From: Methylosinus sp. LW4
GTDB lineage: Bacteria; Pseudomonadota; Alphaproteobacteria; Rhizobiales; Beijerinckiaceae
DNA length: 64,000 bases
Assembly (NCBI RefSeq): GCF_000379125.1
Contig: NZ_KB900626.1
Coordinates: 2,180,667 to 2,244,666, forward strand
Reading direction: 5' to 3'
Shown here one piece after another: positions 48,995 to 55,435 of the stretch. A model generated the notes under the pieces. It saw only the letters and a program-made list of their open reading frames with translations. It had not been told where the DNA came from and ran no database searches. How positions within the stretch are numbered: position 1 is the stretch's first letter; every line of letters starts with the position of its first letter. Made by a program: the position numbers and the translations under genes.

Positions 48995-49312
48995 ATGACG
49001 ACGACATTCGATCCGATCATGAGCCGCTTCCGCGCCGCGCTCGACGAGGCTTACGGCGCACGGCTGCAAAGAGTCGTGCTGTTCGGATCGCGCGCCCGCG
49101 GCGACGCACGACCGGATTCCGATTACGACGTCGCGATCTTTCTGACGGATATGGAGAGCGTCGGGCGAGAAGCGGATCGGATCGCCGAGATCGAGACAGA
49201 TATTCTCTACGACACGGGCGCTGTCATCAACGCCCTGCCCTTCATCGCCGCGGCCTATCGCGAGCCGACCGCGCTGATGGGAGAACTCCGACGCGAAGGC
49301 GTCGATCTGTGA
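48995..49312 (+). CDS. minimal nucleotidyltransferase (MNT) protein
   Basis: A 105-residue polymerase-beta-type nucleotidyltransferase. The signature GSRARGDARPDSDYDVAIF at about 31-49 gives the metal-binding Asp43 and Asp45. Proteins of this kind paired with HEPN partners are antitoxins in MntA/HepT-type systems, where the MNT adds AMP to the toxin. GGAGG directly abuts the ATG at 48995; an ATG at 49019 is an alternative. The stop overlaps the HEPN gene by four bases. Confidence 0.82.
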   Translation: MTTTFDPIMSRFRAALDEAYGARLQRVVLFGSRARGDARPDSDYDVAIFLTDMESVGREADRIAEIETDILYDTGAVINALPFIAAAYREPTALMGELRREGVDL

Positions 49313-49698
49313 AGGCGGAAGCCGCCCACCTTCTCGAAAAGGCGCGCGAAGATCTGAGCGACGCCCGCAAGATCGCCGCCATCGGGCTCGTCAAGGTCGC
49401 CGCTCGCTGCGCCTATTACGCCGCCTTCCATGCCGCCGAAGCCTACATCATGGAAGCGACCGGCAAGAGCGTGAAGACCCATTCCGGCGCGAGAGCCGAG
49501 TTCGCGCGGCTGGCGAAAGACAGCGGAGCGATCGACAAGTCGCTGCCGAAATTCCTCGCCAAAGCCTATATTTACAAGGAAATCAGCGACTATGGCGCTG
49601 GTCCCGGCGCCGATGTCACGCCCGCTGACGCCGAAGAGGCGATCATTGCGGCGACACGCTTCATCGATAGCATAACGGCTTTGCTGGCCAGAGAGTGA
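49309..49698 (+). CDS. HEPN domain protein
   Basis: A 129-residue all-helical HEPN protein, partner of the MNT protein just upstream. The family core is AARCAYYAAFHAAEAYIM (about 31-48), with Arg33 and His41, a longer spacing than the R-x4-6-H motif of HepT-type RNases. That places it nearer the general HEPN (PF05168-like) group. The GTG start at 49309 overlaps the MNT stop (GTGA). The pair may be a toxin-antitoxin module or a nucleotide-binding complex; RNase activity is not certain. Confidence 0.78.
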   Translation: MKAEAAHLLEKAREDLSDARKIAAIGLVKVAARCAYYAAFHAAEAYIMEATGKSVKTHSGARAEFARLAKDSGAIDKSLPKFLAKAYIYKEISDYGAGPGADVTPADAEEAIIAATRFIDSITALLARE

Positions 49699-49703
49699 CG
49701 CCT

Positions 49704-50375
49704 CTACTCCCCCACGCTCCGCAGCGCCGCCGCCGCGGCGAAAGGGCAGAGCGCCAGCGACGCCAGGCTGATCGCGCATAGAATCGCGAAGGGCGCGAAG
49801 AAGGACACTGTGCCGCCCGTCGCCGCCTCCGCCGCCGACACTCCGAAAATCAGCACAGGAATCGTCAACGGCAGCACCAGCAGCGCCATCAGCAGGCCGC
49901 CGCGGCGCAATGTCACCGTCGCCGCCGCGCCTATGGCGCCGATCAGCGTCAGCGCCGGCGTGCCGGCCAGAAGCGTGATCGTGACGGCGACGAGCGCCGT
50001 CTCCTCCTGCTGCAGCATCAGGCCGAGAAAGGGGGCCGCCAGCGTCAGCGGCAGGCCGGTCGTCACCCAATGAGCGGCGCATTTCACCAGAACCGCCAGC
50101 TCGAGCGGCGCGCGGCCGAGGTGAAAGAGATCGAGCGAGCCATCCTCGAGATCGGCTTGAAACAGCCGATCGAGGCAGAGAAGGCTGGCCAGCAGCGCCG
50201 CGATCCACAAGATCGCCGGGCCGATGCGGGCGAGAAGATTGGGGTCCGGTCCGATGGCGAAAGGCGCGATCGACACCATCACCAGAAAAAACACGACGCC
50301 CATGGTCGCCGAGCCGCCGATGCGGCGGGCGACGCGCAAATCGCGCAAGAACAATGCGACAAGCGGAGAATTCAC
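49704..50375 (-). CDS. ccmB: heme exporter protein B, cytochrome c maturation
   Basis: Membrane subunit of the CcmABCD complex that releases holo-CcmE for cytochrome c assembly. The 223-residue length and six hydrophobic segments fit CcmB. Family segments include the N-terminal LFLRDLRVARRIGG, ILWIAALLASLLCLDRLFQADLEDGSLDLF and VKCAAHWVTTGLPL. The start overlaps the ccmA stop (ATGA). ccmC is not next to it. The c-type cytochrome petC at 26 kb is one likely client. Confidence 0.92.
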   Translation of the reverse strand: MNSPLVALFLRDLRVARRIGGSATMGVVFFLVMVSIAPFAIGPDPNLLARIGPAILWIAALLASLLCLDRLFQADLEDGSLDLFHLGRAPLELAVLVKCAAHWVTTGLPLTLAAPFLGLMLQQEETALVAVTITLLAGTPALTLIGAIGAAATVTLRRGGLLMALLVLPLTIPVLIFGVSAAEAATGGTVSFFAPFAILCAISLASLALCPFAAAAALRSVGE

Positions 50376-51043
50376 GAATTCGCTCCCAGCGCCAGCTCGC
50401 GCGCGTCCTCGAGGCCGAGCGGCTCATGCGTGGCGGCGATGATCATTCCGCCGAGCGCGCGATGCTCCGTCATCAGCCGCGCGAGCCGCGTCCGCGAGGC
50501 GGCGTCGAGCGCGCTGGTCGGCTCGTCCAGCAGCCAGAGCGGCCGGAAGACCACCAGCAGGCGAGCCAGCGCGATGCGGCGCTTCTGCCCGGCGGAGAGC
50601 ATGGCGACCGGCGTCTCGGAGAGATGCGCGAGCCCGACGCGCTCCAGCGCCTCGGCCGGCGGGAGGCTGCGGCGATCCGGCTCCTCGCCCAGAAATTGCG
50701 CCCAGAACTCCAGATTCTCGCGGGCGGTGAGCGGCGCCTTCAGCCCATCGGCATGGGCGAGATAATGGAGCAGCGTCGCCGGCTCCTCCGCCTCCGCGGC
50801 GCCCTCGATCGCGACGCTGCCGGAAAGGCGCGGCAAAAGCCCGGCGAGCGCACGCAAAAGCGTCGATTTGCCGGCCCCATTGCGACCAGTGACGATCAGC
50901 GCCTCGCCGCTCGAAAGGGAGAAGCCGAGGCCCGCGAGCACGCGCCGCCCGCCGCGGGCGACGGCGAGATCCTCCACCCGAAGGCGCAGGGCGGAGGCGC
51001 GCTCGGCATGGGGACGGGAGGGCGGATGCGGAATGTCTGTCAT
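50372..51043 (-). CDS. ccmA: heme exporter ATP-binding protein A, cytochrome c maturation
   Basis: ABC-type ATPase of the cytochrome c maturation system. Walker A is GRNGAGKST, the signature motif is LSAGQKRR, and Walker B is LWLLDEPTSALD, followed by a switch-type ATHEP histidine. The ATG at 51043 gives 223 residues; a TTG at 51055 is an alternative. It is cotranscribed with ccmB and divergent from the serine-palmitoyltransferase-like gene across 224 bases. Confidence 0.93.
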   Translation of the reverse strand: MTDIPHPPSRPHAERASALRLRVEDLAVARGGRRVLAGLGFSLSSGEALIVTGRNGAGKSTLLRALAGLLPRLSGSVAIEGAAEAEEPATLLHYLAHADGLKAPLTARENLEFWAQFLGEEPDRRSLPPAEALERVGLAHLSETPVAMLSAGQKRRIALARLLVVFRPLWLLDEPTSALDAASRTRLARLMTEHRALGGMIIAATHEPLGLEDARELALGANS

Positions 51044-51267
51044 CGCCAGAGCCAATAGAGCAACTCCGCCGCAGGGGAAATCCCCGCCTCCCGCGCGCCG
51101 GCGGAGGAGGACTTCCCCCGCGCCACGATGCTTTCGCTGGCGCTCTGGCGCCGAAGGGTGCTAAGCCTGCGGGCCGACCGCGGACGTTCCGAGGAATCGG
51201 GCGTCCTCTTCCAATGCGGCGCCGCGAGACGCGCGCGCGGCCGCAGACTCGAGGGATGACGCACTAA

Positions 51268-52509
51268 GTGGCGAAGCATAACAGCCTTTCGGACTACGCA
51301 TCGAGACGATTTCGTTTCGCCGGCAATGCGCTCCTCCAATATCACGATCCCTTCTTCGCGCAGATCGATCGGCTTCGCGCCGATTTCGAGGCGAAAGGGA
51401 CGCATTTCGTCAGCTTCGCCAATTACGACTATCTCGGCCTCGCCAATCACCCCAAGATTCTGGAGGAGGCCGATCGCGAGCTGCATCGGCTCGGCGTCGG
51501 CGCGCTGGCCTCGCGCCTCGTCGGCGGCGAGCGCTCGACTCACAAGCCCTTCGAGGCGGAGATCGCCGAATTTCTCGGCATGGAGGCGGCGCTGACGCTG
51601 GTCTCCGGCTATCTCGCCAATGTGACGACCATCTCCTGGCTGCTCGGCAAGCGCGACGCTCTGTTCATCGACGAACTCGCCCACAACAGCATCGTCGCCG
51701 GCTGCGAGGCCTCGCCGGCCGAGGTCATCAAGTTCCGCCACAACGACTTCGAGCATCTGGATCATCTCCTCGCCAAGAAGCGCCAGGACTTCCGCCATGT
51801 GCTCATCGTCGTCGAGGGCATCTACAGCATGGACGGCGACACCGCCGATCTGCCGCGCCTCGTGGAGCTGAAAGATCGCCACGACGCCTGGCTGATGGTC
51901 GATGAAGCGCATTCGCTCGGCGTGCTGGGCGAGACGGGCCGCGGCCTCGCCGAGCTGCAGGGCGTCGATCCCGGCCGGCTCGATCTCGTCGTCGGCACCA
52001 TGTCGAAGACTCTCGCCTCCTGCGGCGGCTTCGTCTGCGCGAAAAAGCCGGTCATCGACTGGTTCCGCTACACTCTGCCGGGCTTCGTCTACAGCGTCGG
52101 CCTCTCGCCGGTGATTCTCGCTTCGGCGCGCACCGCCCTGCAGCTGATGCAGGAGGAGAGCTGGCGCGTCGGCAAGCTGGCGCGCAACGCCGAATTCTTC
52201 CGCGATTACGCCCACGCCAATGGGCTGAGCACCGGGCCGGCGATCGGCCGCGGCGTGGTGCCGATTCTGTTCCAGGACAGCGTCGAGACCATGTGGGCCT
52301 CGCAGCATCTGCTCGGCCTCGGCTTCTATGTGCCGCCGATCGTGCAGATCGGCGTGCCCAAGGACCAGCCGCGTCTGCGTTTCTTCCTCTCCGCCAATCA
52401 TTCCGAGGATGAGATTCGCGCTGTGCTCGACGCGCTGCGCGATCTGCCGCCGGTGGCCGCGGAGGCGCATGAATTGGTGAAAAAGGCGATGGCGGGCGCG
52501 AGCCTGTGA
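51268..52509 (+). CDS. spt: serine palmitoyltransferase-like alpha-oxoamine synthase
   Basis: A 413-residue PLP-dependent alpha-oxoamine synthase, the family of serine palmitoyltransferase (SPT), KBL, AONS and ALAS. PLP-site residues are His139 (ELAHNS), Asp212-Glu-Ala-His-Ser, and Lys247 in TMSKTLASCGG. The FANYDYLGL and GVGALASRLVGG segments fit the family. SPT is chosen because the next genes are sphingolipid-type; on sequence alone AONS or a LqsA/CqsA-like signal synthase is possible. There is no membrane segment, as in other bacterial SPTs. The GTG at 51268 follows GAGGGA. It is the first gene of a four-gene cluster. Confidence 0.8.
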   Translation: MAKHNSLSDYASRRFRFAGNALLQYHDPFFAQIDRLRADFEAKGTHFVSFANYDYLGLANHPKILEEADRELHRLGVGALASRLVGGERSTHKPFEAEIAEFLGMEAALTLVSGYLANVTTISWLLGKRDALFIDELAHNSIVAGCEASPAEVIKFRHNDFEHLDHLLAKKRQDFRHVLIVVEGIYSMDGDTADLPRLVELKDRHDAWLMVDEAHSLGVLGETGRGLAELQGVDPGRLDLVVGTMSKTLASCGGFVCAKKPVIDWFRYTLPGFVYSVGLSPVILASARTALQLMQEESWRVGKLARNAEFFRDYAHANGLSTGPAIGRGVVPILFQDSVETMWASQHLLGLGFYVPPIVQIGVPKDQPRLRFFLSANHSEDEIRAVLDALRDLPPVAAEAHELVKKAMAGASL

Positions 52510-52599
52510 GGGCGCGGCTGCGGCCGCTCCCCGCGCTTTCCCTTTCCCGCGTCGATATGCCCGCTTTCGCTCGCTCCTCTAGCTCGATAGGTGTTCGCT

Positions 52600-53790
52600 A
52601 TGGCCGGCATCGAGATTATTCCCGTCGATAATCTTTCGCGATTCCTGACCTTCTGCAAGCTTCCGCGTCTCATCTATAAGGGCCACGAGGGCTTCGCGCC
52701 GTCGCTCGACGCCGAGCGCTGGAATCTCTACAGCCACAAGCTCAATCCGCATTTCCAGCATGTCGAGGCGCAGGAGTTTCTGGCGCGCAAGGACGGCAAA
52801 TGGGTCGGCCGCATCGGCGCGCAGGTCTATAAGACGATTCAGCCCGTCTCCACCTCGCGCTGGCAATTCGGCTCGCTCGACGCCATCGACGACATAGAGG
52901 TCGTGCGCGCGCTGACGCAGGCGGCGGAGGAATGGCTGCGCGCGCGCGGGGCCGAGACCATCGTCGGCCCCTTCTCGCCGGATATCAATGGCGAGAGCGG
53001 CGTGCTGATCGAGGGCTTCGAAGCGACGCCCATGTATCTGACGCCTTGGCATCCTCCCTATCTGTCGCGGCTGATCGAGGCGCTCGGCTATGACAAGGCG
53101 AAGGATCTGGTCTCCTATCGGCATCTCTCCGCCGAGCAGGATCTCAGCAAGGAGCGCCGCATCGCCGCCCGCCCCGAATGGCGCGACCGGCTGAAGATTC
53201 GTCAGCTCGATCGCGATCATCTGAAGCAGGGCGAAACCGCTCTGATGTCCGATCTGTTCAATGACGGCTGGCGCGACAATTGGGGCTTCGTGCCGCTCGG
53301 CAAGGACGAGCTCGACGGCTTCGCGGACCTCATGAAATATGTGATGCCGCCGGAATTCGGCATTGTGCTCGAATTCGACGGCGCGCCGGTCTCCTTCGCG
53401 GTGGCGCTGCCCAATCTGCACGAGATCACCGCCGATTTCGACGGCAAGCTGCTGCCCTTCAATTGGCTCAAGCTGATCTCGCGCATCCGCAAGCACAAAT
53501 TCTCGACCGCGCGCCTGCTGCTGCTCGGCACGCGCAAGACGCTGCAGAACAGCGCGACGGGCGGCGCGATCCTGCTGTCGCTGATCGAGGATATGCGCCG
53601 GCGCAGCTGCGTCGACGCCAGCATCGTCGCCCTCGAGGCCGGCTGGGTGCTCGAGGACAATATGGGCATGCGCAAGCCGATCGAAATGTTCGGCGGCAAG
53701 ATCGACAAGATTCATCGCATTTATGAGAAGCGCGTGGCGGGCGCTCCGCCCGCTGCAACCGAGGCTGTGAGAGAAGAGGCGACGCCATGA
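52600..53790 (+). CDS. GNAT-fold protein, candidate bacterial ceramide synthase
   Basis: A 396-residue protein of a GNAT-superfamily (acyl-CoA N-acyltransferase fold) family common in alphaproteobacteria. Typical segments are FCKLPRLIYKGHEGFAPSL, HFQHVEAQEFLARKDGKWVGRI, and RARGAETIVGPFSPDINGESG. The ceramide synthase of Caulobacter is a GNAT-like protein of about this size, and by position this one could acylate the sphingoid base made by the upstream enzyme. That role is inference. The ATG at 52600 is preferred over GTG at 52591. Its stop overlaps the desaturase start (ATGA), so the two are translationally linked. Confidence 0.7.
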   Translation: MAGIEIIPVDNLSRFLTFCKLPRLIYKGHEGFAPSLDAERWNLYSHKLNPHFQHVEAQEFLARKDGKWVGRIGAQVYKTIQPVSTSRWQFGSLDAIDDIEVVRALTQAAEEWLRARGAETIVGPFSPDINGESGVLIEGFEATPMYLTPWHPPYLSRLIEALGYDKAKDLVSYRHLSAEQDLSKERRIAARPEWRDRLKIRQLDRDHLKQGETALMSDLFNDGWRDNWGFVPLGKDELDGFADLMKYVMPPEFGIVLEFDGAPVSFAVALPNLHEITADFDGKLLPFNWLKLISRIRKHKFSTARLLLLGTRKTLQNSATGGAILLSLIEDMRRRSCVDASIVALEAGWVLEDNMGMRKPIEMFGGKIDKIHRIYEKRVAGAPPAATEAVREEATP

Positions 53791-54782
53791 ATGTCATCTC
53801 GATTTCTTCGACGTCCTCCGCCGACCGCTCGCATGTGGAGCGTCGCCGCCTCATTCTCGAGGCGCATCCCGAGGTGAGGACGCTGTTCGGCAAGGACGAT
53901 CTCACTTTCAAGATCACCGCTGGGATATTCGCCGGCCAGCTGACGATCGCCGCCGTTCTCGGCTGGCTCGGCCTCTCCTATTGGCCGCTGACATTGCTGC
54001 TGGCGATTTGCGTCGGCGCCTTCGCCAATCACGCGGCTTTCGTCGCCATTCACGACGCGATCCATAATTGCGTGTTCGAGAACACGCTCTACAACAAGCT
54101 CACCGCTTTGCTCGCCGATCTCCCCAACGCCTTTCCGACGGCGATGGGCTTTCGCTGCTATCACATCAAGCATCACTCGCATCTGTCGGCCTATGATTAC
54201 GACGCCGACATTCCGAGCCATTGGGAGGTGGAGTGGGTGGGCAATAGCACATGGCGCAAGGCGCTGTGGCTGTTCTTCTTCCCGGCGATCCAGCTGGCGC
54301 GCCTGTCGCGGCTCAAGGGCACTGTGCCTTTCATGGGCTTTTGGACCTATATCAACACGGCCGTCATCCTGATCTTCGACATCTTCGTGCTCTGGGCCTT
54401 CGGCGCCAATGCGCTGCTCTATCTGATCCTGTCCTTCTGGTTCTCGGTCGGCGGGCTGCATCCTCTGAGCGCGCGCTGGGTGCAGGAGCATTTCGCCTTC
54501 GGCCCCAATCAGGGCACGTTCGACTATTACGGCCCGCTCAACAAGGTCGCGCTCAACATCGGCTATCACAACGAGCATCACGACTTTCACGAGATACCCT
54601 GGCGCCGCCTGCCGGAGCTCACCGAAATGGCGCCGGAGTTCTACAAGCCGCTCGGCGCCCATTATTCGTGGTTCGCCCTGCTCGTCACTTTCGTCTTCGA
54701 CCCGCGCTATTCGCTGCAGACGCGCTCCGCCAATGTGGAGGTCGCCAGCGCCGCGCAGCTCGTTCCCGTCCCGGCGGAGTAG
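53787..54782 (+). CDS. sphingolipid delta4-desaturase (DES1-like)
   Basis: A 331-residue membrane desaturase strikingly like animal dihydroceramide delta4-desaturase. It has the DES1 N-terminal pattern (HVERRRLILEAHPEVRTL) and three histidine boxes: H89-DAI-H93, H126-IK-HH130 and H261-NE-HH265. The GYHNEHHDF string and the preceding FDYYGPLNKVALN closely follow DES1. Several hydrophobic segments place it in the inner membrane. The expected reaction introduces a trans double bond at C4 of the sphingoid base. It overlaps the GNAT gene and is followed after 8 bases by the hydroxylase gene. Confidence 0.88.
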   Translation: MNVISISSTSSADRSHVERRRLILEAHPEVRTLFGKDDLTFKITAGIFAGQLTIAAVLGWLGLSYWPLTLLLAICVGAFANHAAFVAIHDAIHNCVFENTLYNKLTALLADLPNAFPTAMGFRCYHIKHHSHLSAYDYDADIPSHWEVEWVGNSTWRKALWLFFFPAIQLARLSRLKGTVPFMGFWTYINTAVILIFDIFVLWAFGANALLYLILSFWFSVGGLHPLSARWVQEHFAFGPNQGTFDYYGPLNKVALNIGYHNEHHDFHEIPWRRLPELTEMAPEFYKPLGAHYSWFALLVTFVFDPRYSLQTRSANVEVASAAQLVPVPAE

Positions 54783-54790
54783 AGTTTCCC

Positions 54791-55435
54791 ATGACTGCCA
54801 TTGAAAACGAGGCGCTCGACGCCTCGCCGCGCCTCTTCGAGAGCGACCTTCTCGACAAATATTCGCGCGTCCACCATCTGACCCCGCCGCTCGTCTATGG
54901 GCCGATCATCCTCTGGCTCCTCGCCTATGCGAGCAATTATGCGAGCGCGGGCTATATTCTCCTCGCCTTCGTCGCCGGCTACATCGCCTGGACGCTGACC
55001 GAATATTTCGGCCATCGCTTCCTGTTCCATACGGTGTTTCCGCTGCCCTTCGGGCTCGGGCCGCGCTTCCAATTCCTCATCCATGGCGTGCATCACATCT
55101 ATCCGAGCGATCCGCTGCGGCTCGTCATGCCGCCGCTGCTGTCGACGCCGATCATGCTGATCGCGCTCTCGCTCATCCGCCTCGTCTTCGGCGGCGATTT
55201 CGCGTGGCCCATGCTCGCGGGCTTCATCGCCGGCTATGTGCTCTATGACTGCGTGCATTATTGGACGCATCACGGCCAGCCCAAGTCCAAGCTCGGCCAT
55301 CTGGTGCGCCGCCTGCACATGCTGCATCATTTCCGCGATCCAGAACGCGGCTTCGGCGTCCATGCGATCTGGTGGGATTATGTCTTCGGCACCAATTATG
55401 CGAAGGACCAGACGCCCGGCAGCCGCGCCTTGTGA
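54791..55435 (+). CDS. fatty-acid 2-hydroxylase-like membrane enzyme (FA2H/Scs7 type)
   Basis: A 214-residue di-iron membrane hydroxylase of the fatty acid hydroxylase superfamily. Histidine clusters follow the FA2H/Scs7 pattern: H75-RFLF-H80, H98-GV-HH102, H156-YWT-HH161 and H176-ML-HH180. The IYPSDPLRLVMPP stretch and the ending FGVHAIWWDYVFGTNY are also close to FA2H. Four hydrophobic helices are present. The cytochrome b5 domain of fungal and animal enzymes is missing, so a separate electron donor is needed. Expected product is a 2-hydroxylated acyl chain of ceramide. It is the last gene of the cluster. Confidence 0.85.
   Translation: MTAIENEALDASPRLFESDLLDKYSRVHHLTPPLVYGPIILWLLAYASNYASAGYILLAFVAGYIAWTLTEYFGHRFLFHTVFPLPFGLGPRFQFLIHGVHHIYPSDPLRLVMPPLLSTPIMLIALSLIRLVFGGDFAWPMLAGFIAGYVLYDCVHYWTHHGQPKSKLGHLVRRLHMLHHFRDPERGFGVHAIWWDYVFGTNYAKDQTPGSRAL

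What the first reader, a model, noticed from the sequence alone, without database searches (positions are those of the whole stretch)
51268..55435. Compact four-gene ceramide-type pathway: SPT, GNAT acyltransferase, DES1-like desaturase, FA2H-like hydroxylase
The sequence shows four co-directional genes. The GNAT and desaturase genes overlap by ATGA, and the hydroxylase follows after 8 bases. Each maps to a step of sphingolipid synthesis: base formation, N-acylation, delta4-desaturation, acyl 2-hydroxylation. Caulobacter and Sphingomonas make ceramides with SPT and a GNAT-like ceramide synthase, but a DES1-like desaturase and an FA2H-like hydroxylase in the same operon would yield eukaryote-like 4-unsaturated, 2-hydroxylated ceramides. 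Usual bacterial partners (ACP, acyl-ACP synthetase, 3-ketosphinganine reductase) are absent from the cluster, so they must be elsewhere or the pathway differs. The pathway assignment is inference from homology and linkage.
Basis: partly seen in the sequence, partly recalled or inferred. Interest (0 to 1): 0.88.

Follow-up and report, generated by a model that had tools for sequence, protein, structure and literature searches.

The report
Eukaryote-like ceramide pathway in methane-eating bacteria
This methane-eating bacterium carries a linked set of genes that looks able to build and decorate ceramide lipids much as plants, fungi and animals do, and related gene sets occur in several other groups of bacteria; no lipid has been measured yet.

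Summary
The four genes are real and placed as described: an SPT-like alpha-oxoamine synthase, a GNAT acyltransferase, a DES-family desaturase and an FA2H/Scs7-like hydroxylase, in a Methylosinus-type methanotroph.

A ceramide-type pathway is the best explanation. SPT+GNAT+desaturase stand together in 34 of 36 Methylocystaceae/Beijerinckiaceae-type loci; all four recur, reordered, in 15 of 25 verrucomicrobial, 1 of 1 acidobacterial and 1 of 13 Bacteroidota loci. The Bacteroidota one holds an SPT over its curated cut-off.

New: candidates for the 'missing' partners lie in a second operon 0.47 Mb away (ACP, KAS, a MaoC-like dehydratase with small partner, SDR, two glycosyltransferases). In three other genomes all eleven genes lie within 10-13 kb. 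Predicted product: a glycosylated, 4-desaturated (or 4-hydroxylated), 2-hydroxylated ceramide.

Against: the SPT tree favours the SPT side (96/89), but AU tests reject neither AONS (p=0.119) nor KBL (p=0.256); no curated SPT cut-off is met; passages of a lipid study of Methylosinus trichosporium OB3b name no native sphingolipid. My nine searches of open-access papers listed no bacterial delta-4 sphingolipid desaturase.

The parts
51268..52509 (+). SPT-like alpha-oxoamine synthase, 413 aa, GTG start
   Evidence: (PF00155), 5 and 47: best solved relative is Sphingobacterium SPT 1.2e-64, then E. coli KBL 5.9e-63; PLP-lysine and His/Asp motifs kept in the alignments. NCBIfam: bioF 347.6/426, SPT-beta 302/500, SPT-CFB 276.6/640, SPT-alpha 214/670 (score/cut-off), so none is met. 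Tree.
52600..53790 (+). GNAT-like N-acyltransferase (ceramide-synthase candidate, bCerS-like), 396 aa from ATG; GTG52591 possible
   Evidence: A homologue 1 kb from a canonical SPT (L176) has this gene as its only match at E<=0.001 in the own genome: 1.3e-76, 37%, residues 4-374 of 374. Own PF00583 match is below cut-off; the L116 and L115 homologues pass it; the L176 one has no Pfam match.
53787..54782 (+). DES-family sphingolipid 4-desaturase (C4-hydroxylase not excluded), 331 aa
   Evidence: PF08557 and PF00487 over cut-off; the histidines of boxes HDAIH (89), HIKHH (126) and HNEHH (261) are invariant in 24 close relatives and in 8 sequences from 3 phyla; AF2 model pLDDT 79.7.
54791..55435 (+). 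FA2H/Scs7-like ceramide fatty-acyl 2-hydroxylase without cytochrome b5 domain, 214 aa
   Evidence: PF04116; yeast Scs7 4.2e-24 over residues 20-206 with HxxxxH, HGxHH, HxxxHH and HxxHH motifs kept; these histidines invariant in 7 sequences from 4 phyla.

Best explanation
The four genes are the core of a ceramide-type (sphingolipid) pathway. Steps in the proposed order: (1) an acyl thioester, probably carried by the dedicated ACP of the second operon and built or extended there by KAS, the MaoC-like dehydratase with its partner and a ketoreductase, is condensed with serine by the SPT-like enzyme. (2) The GNAT enzyme adds the N-acyl chain. (3) An SDR, in the role that CerR has in Caulobacter, reduces the 3-keto group; it may instead, or also, be the beta-ketoacyl-ACP reductase. 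(4) The DES-family enzyme puts a C4 double bond (or hydroxyl) in the base. (5) The Scs7-like enzyme 2-hydroxylates the N-acyl chain. (6) The GT21-family enzyme, perhaps followed by the GT2, adds sugar. Shown: gene families, coordinates, active-site motifs, linkage and co-occurrence. Inferred: every substrate, product, step order and the identity of the sugar.
For: Linkage: of 80 loci kept from a genome scan, tblastn at >=80 bits finds SPT+GNAT+DES in 34 of 36 Methylocystaceae/Beijerinckiaceae-type loci (in the other two the desaturase lies at a contig end) and all four genes in 37 of 80: 20/36, Verrucomicrobiota 15/25, Acidobacteriota 1/1, Bacteroidota 1/13, other Pseudomonadota 0/5. In Bacteroidota L116, DES and FAH sit with an SPT above the curated CFB cut-off (681 vs 640), a GNAT, an epimerase-type protein homologous (25-28%) to those beside canonical SPTs, a PAP2 and a CDP-alcohol transferase. 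Second operon in the own genome, G000:C1:2702433-2708076, minus strand: ACP, KAS, a small protein without Pfam match, MaoC-like, SDR, GT21, GT2. All eleven genes lie within 10-13 kb in L054, L055 and L178. In 60 relatives GT21 occurs in 15 of 17 desaturase genomes and 1 of 43 others, the SDR in 15 of 17 and 0 of 43. In G256 and G268 a hydroxylase is beside GT21 instead of DES (L190/L191). The KAS (58-62%) and a MaoC also flank a different SPT lineage in three Phreatobacter-type genomes and G291 (L241-L244). The GNAT is the sole own-genome match of an SPT-linked GNAT. FAH matches Scs7. The own genome has a separate ALAS and a bioF-like gene, so heme and biotin need not use this one.
Against: AU tests do not reject METH+AONS (p=0.119) or METH+KBL (p=0.256). 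The first gene's highest NCBIfam score is bioF (347.6, below cut-off), not SPT. PMC9239053 (passages seen): the M. trichosporium OB3b lipidome is dominated by PG, PE and methylated PE, with MGDG, GADG and ornithine lipid at low phosphate; its only 'sphingo' word is an added standard. Whether OB3b carries this cluster was not tested. Twelve of 13 Bacteroidota loci and three Phreatobacter-type loci have the desaturase alone; an SPT-like gene lies elsewhere in 13 of 16 such genomes, only one of them over a curated cut-off, and none was recognised in three Bacteroidota. No FAH lies in the fetched stretch of 15 of 36 loci, some cut by contig ends. Co-occurrence thresholds were chosen after seeing the hits: at E<=1e-30 29 of 60 genomes have an SDR match, and the best one in a desaturase-free genome (1.6e-61) beats that of desaturase genome G256 (8e-55).
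Confidence: 0.78

Rival explanations
1. A bacterial sphingolipid pathway as above, but the DES-family enzyme is a C4-hydroxylase (phytosphingosine type) or bifunctional, so the product is 4-hydroxy rather than 4-unsaturated.
For: Several JGI names among the 120 listed relatives read 'sphingolipid 4-desaturase/C4-monooxygenase'; animal DES2 is bifunctional (recalled).
Against: More of the JGI names in that list read 'sphingolipid delta-4 desaturase', but by annotation only. Sequence alone does not separate the two here.
Confidence: 0.25
2. The first enzyme is not an SPT: it uses another amino acid (alanine, glycine or other) and the set makes a different N-acyl aminoketone-derived lipid (1-deoxy- or other sphingoid analogue).
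For: Curated SPT cut-offs not met; AU tests inconclusive; alpha-oxoamine synthases vary in amino acid (recalled).
Against: GNAT, DES and FAH relatives sit beside an SPT over cut-off in L116 and with a third lineage in Verrucomicrobiota. ML support 96/89 groups it with SPTs.
Confidence: 0.15
3. The second operon is a separate fatty-acid/polyketide-type or glycolipid operon; GT21 glycosylates diacylglycerol or another lipid and the SDR is only a FabG-like reductase.
For: KAS, ACP, MaoC-like protein and SDR form a FAS-II-like set. The SDR's best solved relatives are FabG type. GT21's only NCBIfam hit is HpnI, below cut-off. OB3b still makes MGDG without plcP-agt, by an unidentified transferase (PMC9239053 passage).
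Against: Genes of the module lie in the same stretch as SPT/GNAT/DES in 12 of 36 loci and in L178, L211 (with DES) and L214 (without the SDR), and KAS/MaoC stand beside another SPT lineage; co-occurrence; an SDR relative stands beside a GNAT in L115 with no KAS hit in that 19.7-kb stretch.
Confidence: 0.2
4. Chance neighbourhood of unrelated lipid genes.
For: None beyond the general frequency of lipid genes.
Against: Same genes re-linked in different orders in four phyla.
Confidence: 0.02

Closest known systems
Caulobacter-type bacterial ceramide pathway (Spt, bCerS, CerR, AcpR, AasR)
   Same: SPT-family enzyme, a GNAT acyltransferase 37% identical to the GNAT beside the canonical SPT in L176, a dedicated ACP (here in the second operon).
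   Different: The SPT-like enzyme is a separate deep lineage; no clear CerR found in the own genome, an SDR instead; a KAS/dehydratase module; added DES-family desaturase and Scs7-like hydroxylase. PMC9386255, PMC11087976 and PMC11334938 have 0 occurrences of 'desaturase' in the main text.
Rhodothalassium salexigens dihydroceramides
   Same: An alphaproteobacterium with sphingolipids, an SPT gene and a gene annotated as sphingolipid/fatty acid hydroxylase (PMC11762602 passage).
   Different: Described there as plain dihydroceramides, not glycosylated or phosphorylated. The passage mentions no desaturase and no linkage; its genes were not compared here.
Eukaryotic DES1/DES2 sphingolipid 4-desaturases (Pfam PF08557+PF00487)
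   Same: Same two Pfam domains in the same order, three His boxes.
   Different: Bacterial operon gene; Lipid_DES match partial (positions 11-35 of 37). No eukaryotic sequence was compared directly.
Yeast Scs7 / FA2H ceramide 2-hydroxylase
   Same: Match over the catalytic domain, 4.2e-24, metal-binding His motifs.
   Different: No cytochrome b5 domain in the 214-aa protein.
PKS-derived sphinganines of Pseudomonas fluorescens MYb115 (sgaAB)
   Same: Dedicated acyl-chain assembly feeding an alpha-oxoamine synthase (PMC12134224 passages).
   Different: There an iterative type I PKS; here discrete KAS, ACP and dehydratase, with N-acylation, desaturation, hydroxylation and glycosylation genes.
Moss/plant route in which delta4-desaturation feeds glucosylceramide synthase (Physcomitrium)
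   Same: Pairing of a delta4-desaturase with a ceramide glycosyltransferase (PMC8318264 outline and short abstract).
   Different: Plant enzymes; the analogy is mine.

Membership tests
Serine palmitoyltransferase | Passes a curated SPT equivalog cut-off | tested here: not met
   302/500, 276.6/640, 214/670 bits; hence filed as 'SPT-like' only
Serine palmitoyltransferase | Groups with SPTs, not AONS/KBL/ALAS, in a tree | tested here: inconclusive
   ML 96/89 with SPTs and linked lineages; AU p 0.119 (AONS) and 0.256 (KBL)
Serine palmitoyltransferase | PLP lysine and substrate-site residues | tested here: met
   Read by eye: K, H, D..H and final R aligned, but KBL shares most of them. The arginine of the Sphingomonas RPPATP loop (role recalled) is V here and in Sphingobacterium SPT
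Serine palmitoyltransferase | L-serine + long-chain acyl thioester to 3-ketosphinganine | not testable with these tools
   needs assay
bCerS-type ceramide synthase | Full-length homology to SPT-linked GNAT | tested here: met
   1.3e-76, 37%, only match in genome; that the L176 neighbour is a bCerS is inference from position
Sphingolipid DES (4-desaturase) | PF08557 N-terminal domain plus PF00487 | tested here: met
   32.1 vs 23 and 71.9 vs 29.7 bits
Sphingolipid DES (4-desaturase) | Three His boxes | tested here: met
Sphingolipid DES (4-desaturase) | Desaturates C4 of ceramide | not testable with these tools
   needs assay/lipidomics
FA2H/Scs7 | PF04116 with Scs7-like His motifs | tested here: met
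FA2H/Scs7 | Cytochrome b5 domain (accessory: plant FAH lacks it, recalled) | tested here: not met
   214 aa, no such Pfam match; hence 'Scs7-like'
Ceramide glucosyltransferase (GT21), second operon | PF13506 | tested here: met
   151.6 vs 21.7 bits; other lipids as acceptor not excluded
Ceramide glucosyltransferase (GT21), second operon | Not an HpnI by the curated model | tested here: met
   TIGR03472 153.8 vs cut-off 310
Caulobacter-type pathway | CerR reductase | tested here: inconclusive
   The L116 epimerase finds canonical-SPT neighbours at 1e-22 to 6e-33 but own-genome proteins only at 1.5e-13, 26%. A canonical CerR-like protein (L176) was compared only with three own-genome loci, not the whole genome
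Caulobacter-type pathway | AasR acyl-ACP synthetase | not tested
   -

The most novel reading that the evidence does not exclude
Type II methanotrophs and relatives make glycosylceramides of eukaryotic design (4-unsaturated base, 2-hydroxy N-acyl chain, sugar head) through an eleven-gene pathway with its own fatty-acid assembly line (ACP, KAS, HadAB-like dehydratase pair, reductase). The DES and FA2H families linked to SPT in four bacterial phyla may be old bacterial enzymes from which eukaryotes drew theirs, rather than late transfers from eukaryotes.
Probability: 0.35. Interest if true: 0.93.

Novelty: new variant of a known kind. Interest (0 to 1): 0.82.

Why it matters
C4-unsaturated bases and 2-hydroxy N-acyl chains together with a sugar head are taken as marks of eukaryotic sphingolipids (recalled). 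If these bacteria make them, sphingosine-type lipids in soils and sediments are not eukaryote-only markers, methanotroph membranes hold an unrecorded lipid class, and the origin of the eukaryotic desaturase and hydroxylase becomes a testable question. A KAS/dehydratase module tied to SPT would be a third way of supplying the acyl chain, besides acyl-ACP synthetase and PKS.

Tried and rejected
AONS (biotin) or KBL for the first gene: the own genome has a separate ALAS (634 bits, over cut-off) and a bioF-like gene (344.7, below cut-off), which weakens but does not exclude this; AU tests inconclusive. CerR-type reductase: only weak epimerase matches in the own genome. A viral source of the desaturase: 37 pattern matches in viral contigs, none a relative. 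PDB by sequence for the desaturase: no credible match. By fold: best 8xks_K E 3.6e-4, AlkB third at 0.048, only weakly informative. PDB for the GNAT: best E 0.51, nothing credible. I meant to align and fold the GNAT but did not manage it.

Literature: nine searches in open-access PMC only; where more than 20 papers fitted, 20 were listed. No listing named a bacterial sphingolipid delta4-desaturase or methanotroph sphingolipids; subscription papers are not covered. The founding bCerS/CerR paper was not read; it is cited through PMC11087976 passages. Papers seen: PMC9239053, PMC11087976, PMC9386255, PMC12134224, PMC11334938 and PMC11762602 as passages; PMC8318264 as outline and short abstract; others as search listings only.
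Full report
What is there. The window is part of a 4.8-Mb, three-contig genome, handle G000. The nearest named relative among the fetched loci is Methylosinus sporium DSM 17706 (L039; SPT 99, GNAT 95, DES 96, FAH 96% identical). All ten same-genus genomes searched, own included, hold the desaturase, and the GNAT and hydroxylase are beside it in the nine other ones (L119-L126, L128).

What each protein is. Gene 1 is an alpha-oxoamine synthase: the closest solved structures are Sphingobacterium SPT (1.2e-64) and E. coli KBL (5.9e-63), and its best NCBIfam score is bioF, with bioF and the three SPT models below cut-off. A 62-row ML tree puts it in a clade with canonical SPTs, a Bacteroidota SPT and the verrucomicrobial linked enzymes, against ALAS, AONS and KBL, support 96/89. 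AU tests do not reject union of its lineage with AONS (p 0.119) or KBL (p 0.256). I therefore call it SPT-like. Gene 2 is a GNAT-type acyltransferase by homology to L116 and L115 members that pass Pfam, its own Pfam match being below cut-off. It is the only match in the genome of the GNAT near a canonical SPT (L176; 37%, 1.3e-76). Of five canonical-SPT neighbourhoods fetched, L172, L173 and L176 hold such a GNAT (35-37%) and L174 and L175 do not. Gene 3 carries the sphingolipid-desaturase N-terminal domain and the desaturase domain over cut-off. The histidines of its three boxes are invariant in eight sequences from Pseudomonadota, Verrucomicrobiota and Bacteroidota and in 24 close relatives. 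Gene 4 matches yeast Scs7 over its catalytic domain and its His motifs are kept in seven sequences from four phyla.

Linkage outside the genus. With a tblastn threshold of 80 bits, SPT, GNAT and DES stand together in 34 of 36 Methylocystaceae/Beijerinckiaceae-type loci; in the other two (L063, L074) the desaturase lies at a contig end. FAH is present in 21 of 36, and all four genes in 20 of 36. All four are in 15 of 25 Verrucomicrobiota (order DES-FAH-SPT-CDP-alcohol transferase-GNAT), 1 of 1 Acidobacteriota, 1 of 13 Bacteroidota and 0 of 5 other Pseudomonadota. The Bacteroidota case, L116, is an anchor: CDP-alcohol transferase, DES, FAH, PAP2, SPT (681 bits, cut-off 640), GNAT, epimerase-type protein. 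Sixteen genomes with a desaturase away from the other genes were searched with the Bacteroidota SPT model. Thirteen have an SPT-like gene: 9 of 12 Bacteroidota by 45-74% identity to the L116 SPT, and three Phreatobacter-type genomes plus G291 by 44-45% to a canonical SPT. Only one of the sixteen has a match over the curated cut-off, and in three Bacteroidota none was recognised.

The second operon. In L115 an SDR sits beside the GNAT, and in L059 (Methylocapsa acidiphila) a GT21 sits beside the desaturase. Used as queries they found, in the own genome, adjacent genes: SDR 39%, 7e-38, with the next SDR at 4e-17; GT21 48%, 4e-106. Reading on, the operon at G000:C1:2702433-2708076 (minus) is ACP, KAS, a small protein without Pfam match, MaoC-like dehydratase, SDR, GT21, GT2. 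The GT2 is named from its 77% identical L178 homologue. I take the small protein as the non-catalytic partner of the MaoC-like one; the set is then like the mycobacterial FAS-II set AcpM-KasA-HadAB-MabA (inference, recalled comparison). In L054, L055 and L178 all eleven genes lie within 10-13 kb (in L054 with a 2.9-kb unread gap between the two halves), and in 12 of 36 loci the SDR lies in the same fetched stretch as the desaturase. In G256 and G268 a hydroxylase is paired with GT21 away from DES (L190, L191). In three Phreatobacter-type genomes and G291 the KAS (58-62%) and a MaoC flank a different SPT. In 60 relatives, with thresholds set after seeing the hits (DES 1e-100, GT21 1e-69, SDR 1e-80), GT21 is in 15 of 17 desaturase genomes and 1 of 43 others, and the SDR in 15 of 17 and 0 of 43 (Fisher 4e-11 and 3e-12; outside the genus 6/7 vs 1/43 and 5/7 vs 0/43, 3e-6 and 1e-5). 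The GT21 misses are G291 and G247, where a fragment lies beside the SDR; the SDR misses are G291 and G256. The SDR split depends on the threshold: at 1e-30 29 of 60 genomes have a match, and desaturase-free G284 (1.6e-61) exceeds G256 (8e-55). Related genomes are not independent, so these p-values overstate.

How it probably works. The dedicated ACP carries a chain made or lengthened by KAS, the dehydratase and a reductase; the SPT-like enzyme joins it to serine; the GNAT acylates; the SDR reduces; DES desaturates (or hydroxylates) C4; the Scs7-like enzyme 2-hydroxylates the N-acyl chain; GT21, perhaps then GT2, adds sugar. Known pieces of this logic: SPTs of three Rhodobacteria prefer acyl-AcpR (PMC9386255 abstract and passages); bCerS is proposed to act before CerR in Caulobacter (PMC11087976 passages); delta4-desaturation enables glycosylceramide formation in a moss (PMC8318264 short abstract); a PKS can feed an alpha-oxoamine synthase (PMC12134224 passages). 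The substrate of each enzyme here is inferred.

What speaks against it. Besides the tree tests and unmet cut-offs, a lipid study of M. trichosporium OB3b (PMC9239053, passages) names PG, PE and its methylated forms, and MGDG, GADG and ornithine lipid at low phosphate; its only 'sphingo' word is an added standard. I did not test whether that strain has the cluster, and minor lipids could be missed. That study also leaves MGDG synthesis to an unidentified glycosyltransferase, a rival role for GT21. No clear CerR was found, but a canonical CerR was not searched through the whole own genome.

Novelty. Bacterial ceramide synthesis is known, and one alphaproteobacterium (Rhodothalassium) is reported with dihydroceramides, an SPT and a sphingolipid/fatty acid hydroxylase gene (PMC11762602 passage). 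DES- and FA2H-type genes in one operon with SPT, the KAS/MaoC supply module and an SDR where CerR would be expected are not described in the listings and passages I saw (nine searches, open-access library only). I file it as a new variant of a known kind.

Noticed in passing
window 48995-49312 (+) and 49309-49698 (+): Overlapping MNT nucleotidyltransferase (PF01909) and HEPN (PF05168) genes, a HEPN-MNT type pair.
   Followed up: partly
window 49704-51055 (-): CcmB (PF03379) and an ABC ATPase (PF00005), by position likely CcmA: heme exporter genes next to the cluster on the other strand.
   Followed up: partly
L225 (unnamed alphaproteobacterium of another family): An alpha-oxoamine synthase 48% identical to gene 1, sister to its lineage in the tree; neighbourhood not read.
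   Followed up: no
Verrucomicrobiota/Acidobacteriota loci, e.g. L084 13193-14137, L108: A CDP-alcohol phosphatidyltransferase family gene sits between SPT and GNAT, suggesting a phospho-head group on these ceramides.
   Followed up: partly
L116 6814-13871 (Saprospiraceae MAG): One operon-like run with CDP-alcohol transferase, DES, FAH, PAP2_3, SPT, GNAT and epimerase, resembling a whole phosphosphingolipid pathway.
   Followed up: partly
L078, L081, L085, L087, L088, L089, L091, L093, L095, L096, L100, L103, L105, L107, L118: DES-family gene without SPT, GNAT or FAH in the fetched stretch; in three of these genomes (those of L085, L087, L118) no SPT-like gene was recognised elsewhere.
   Followed up: partly
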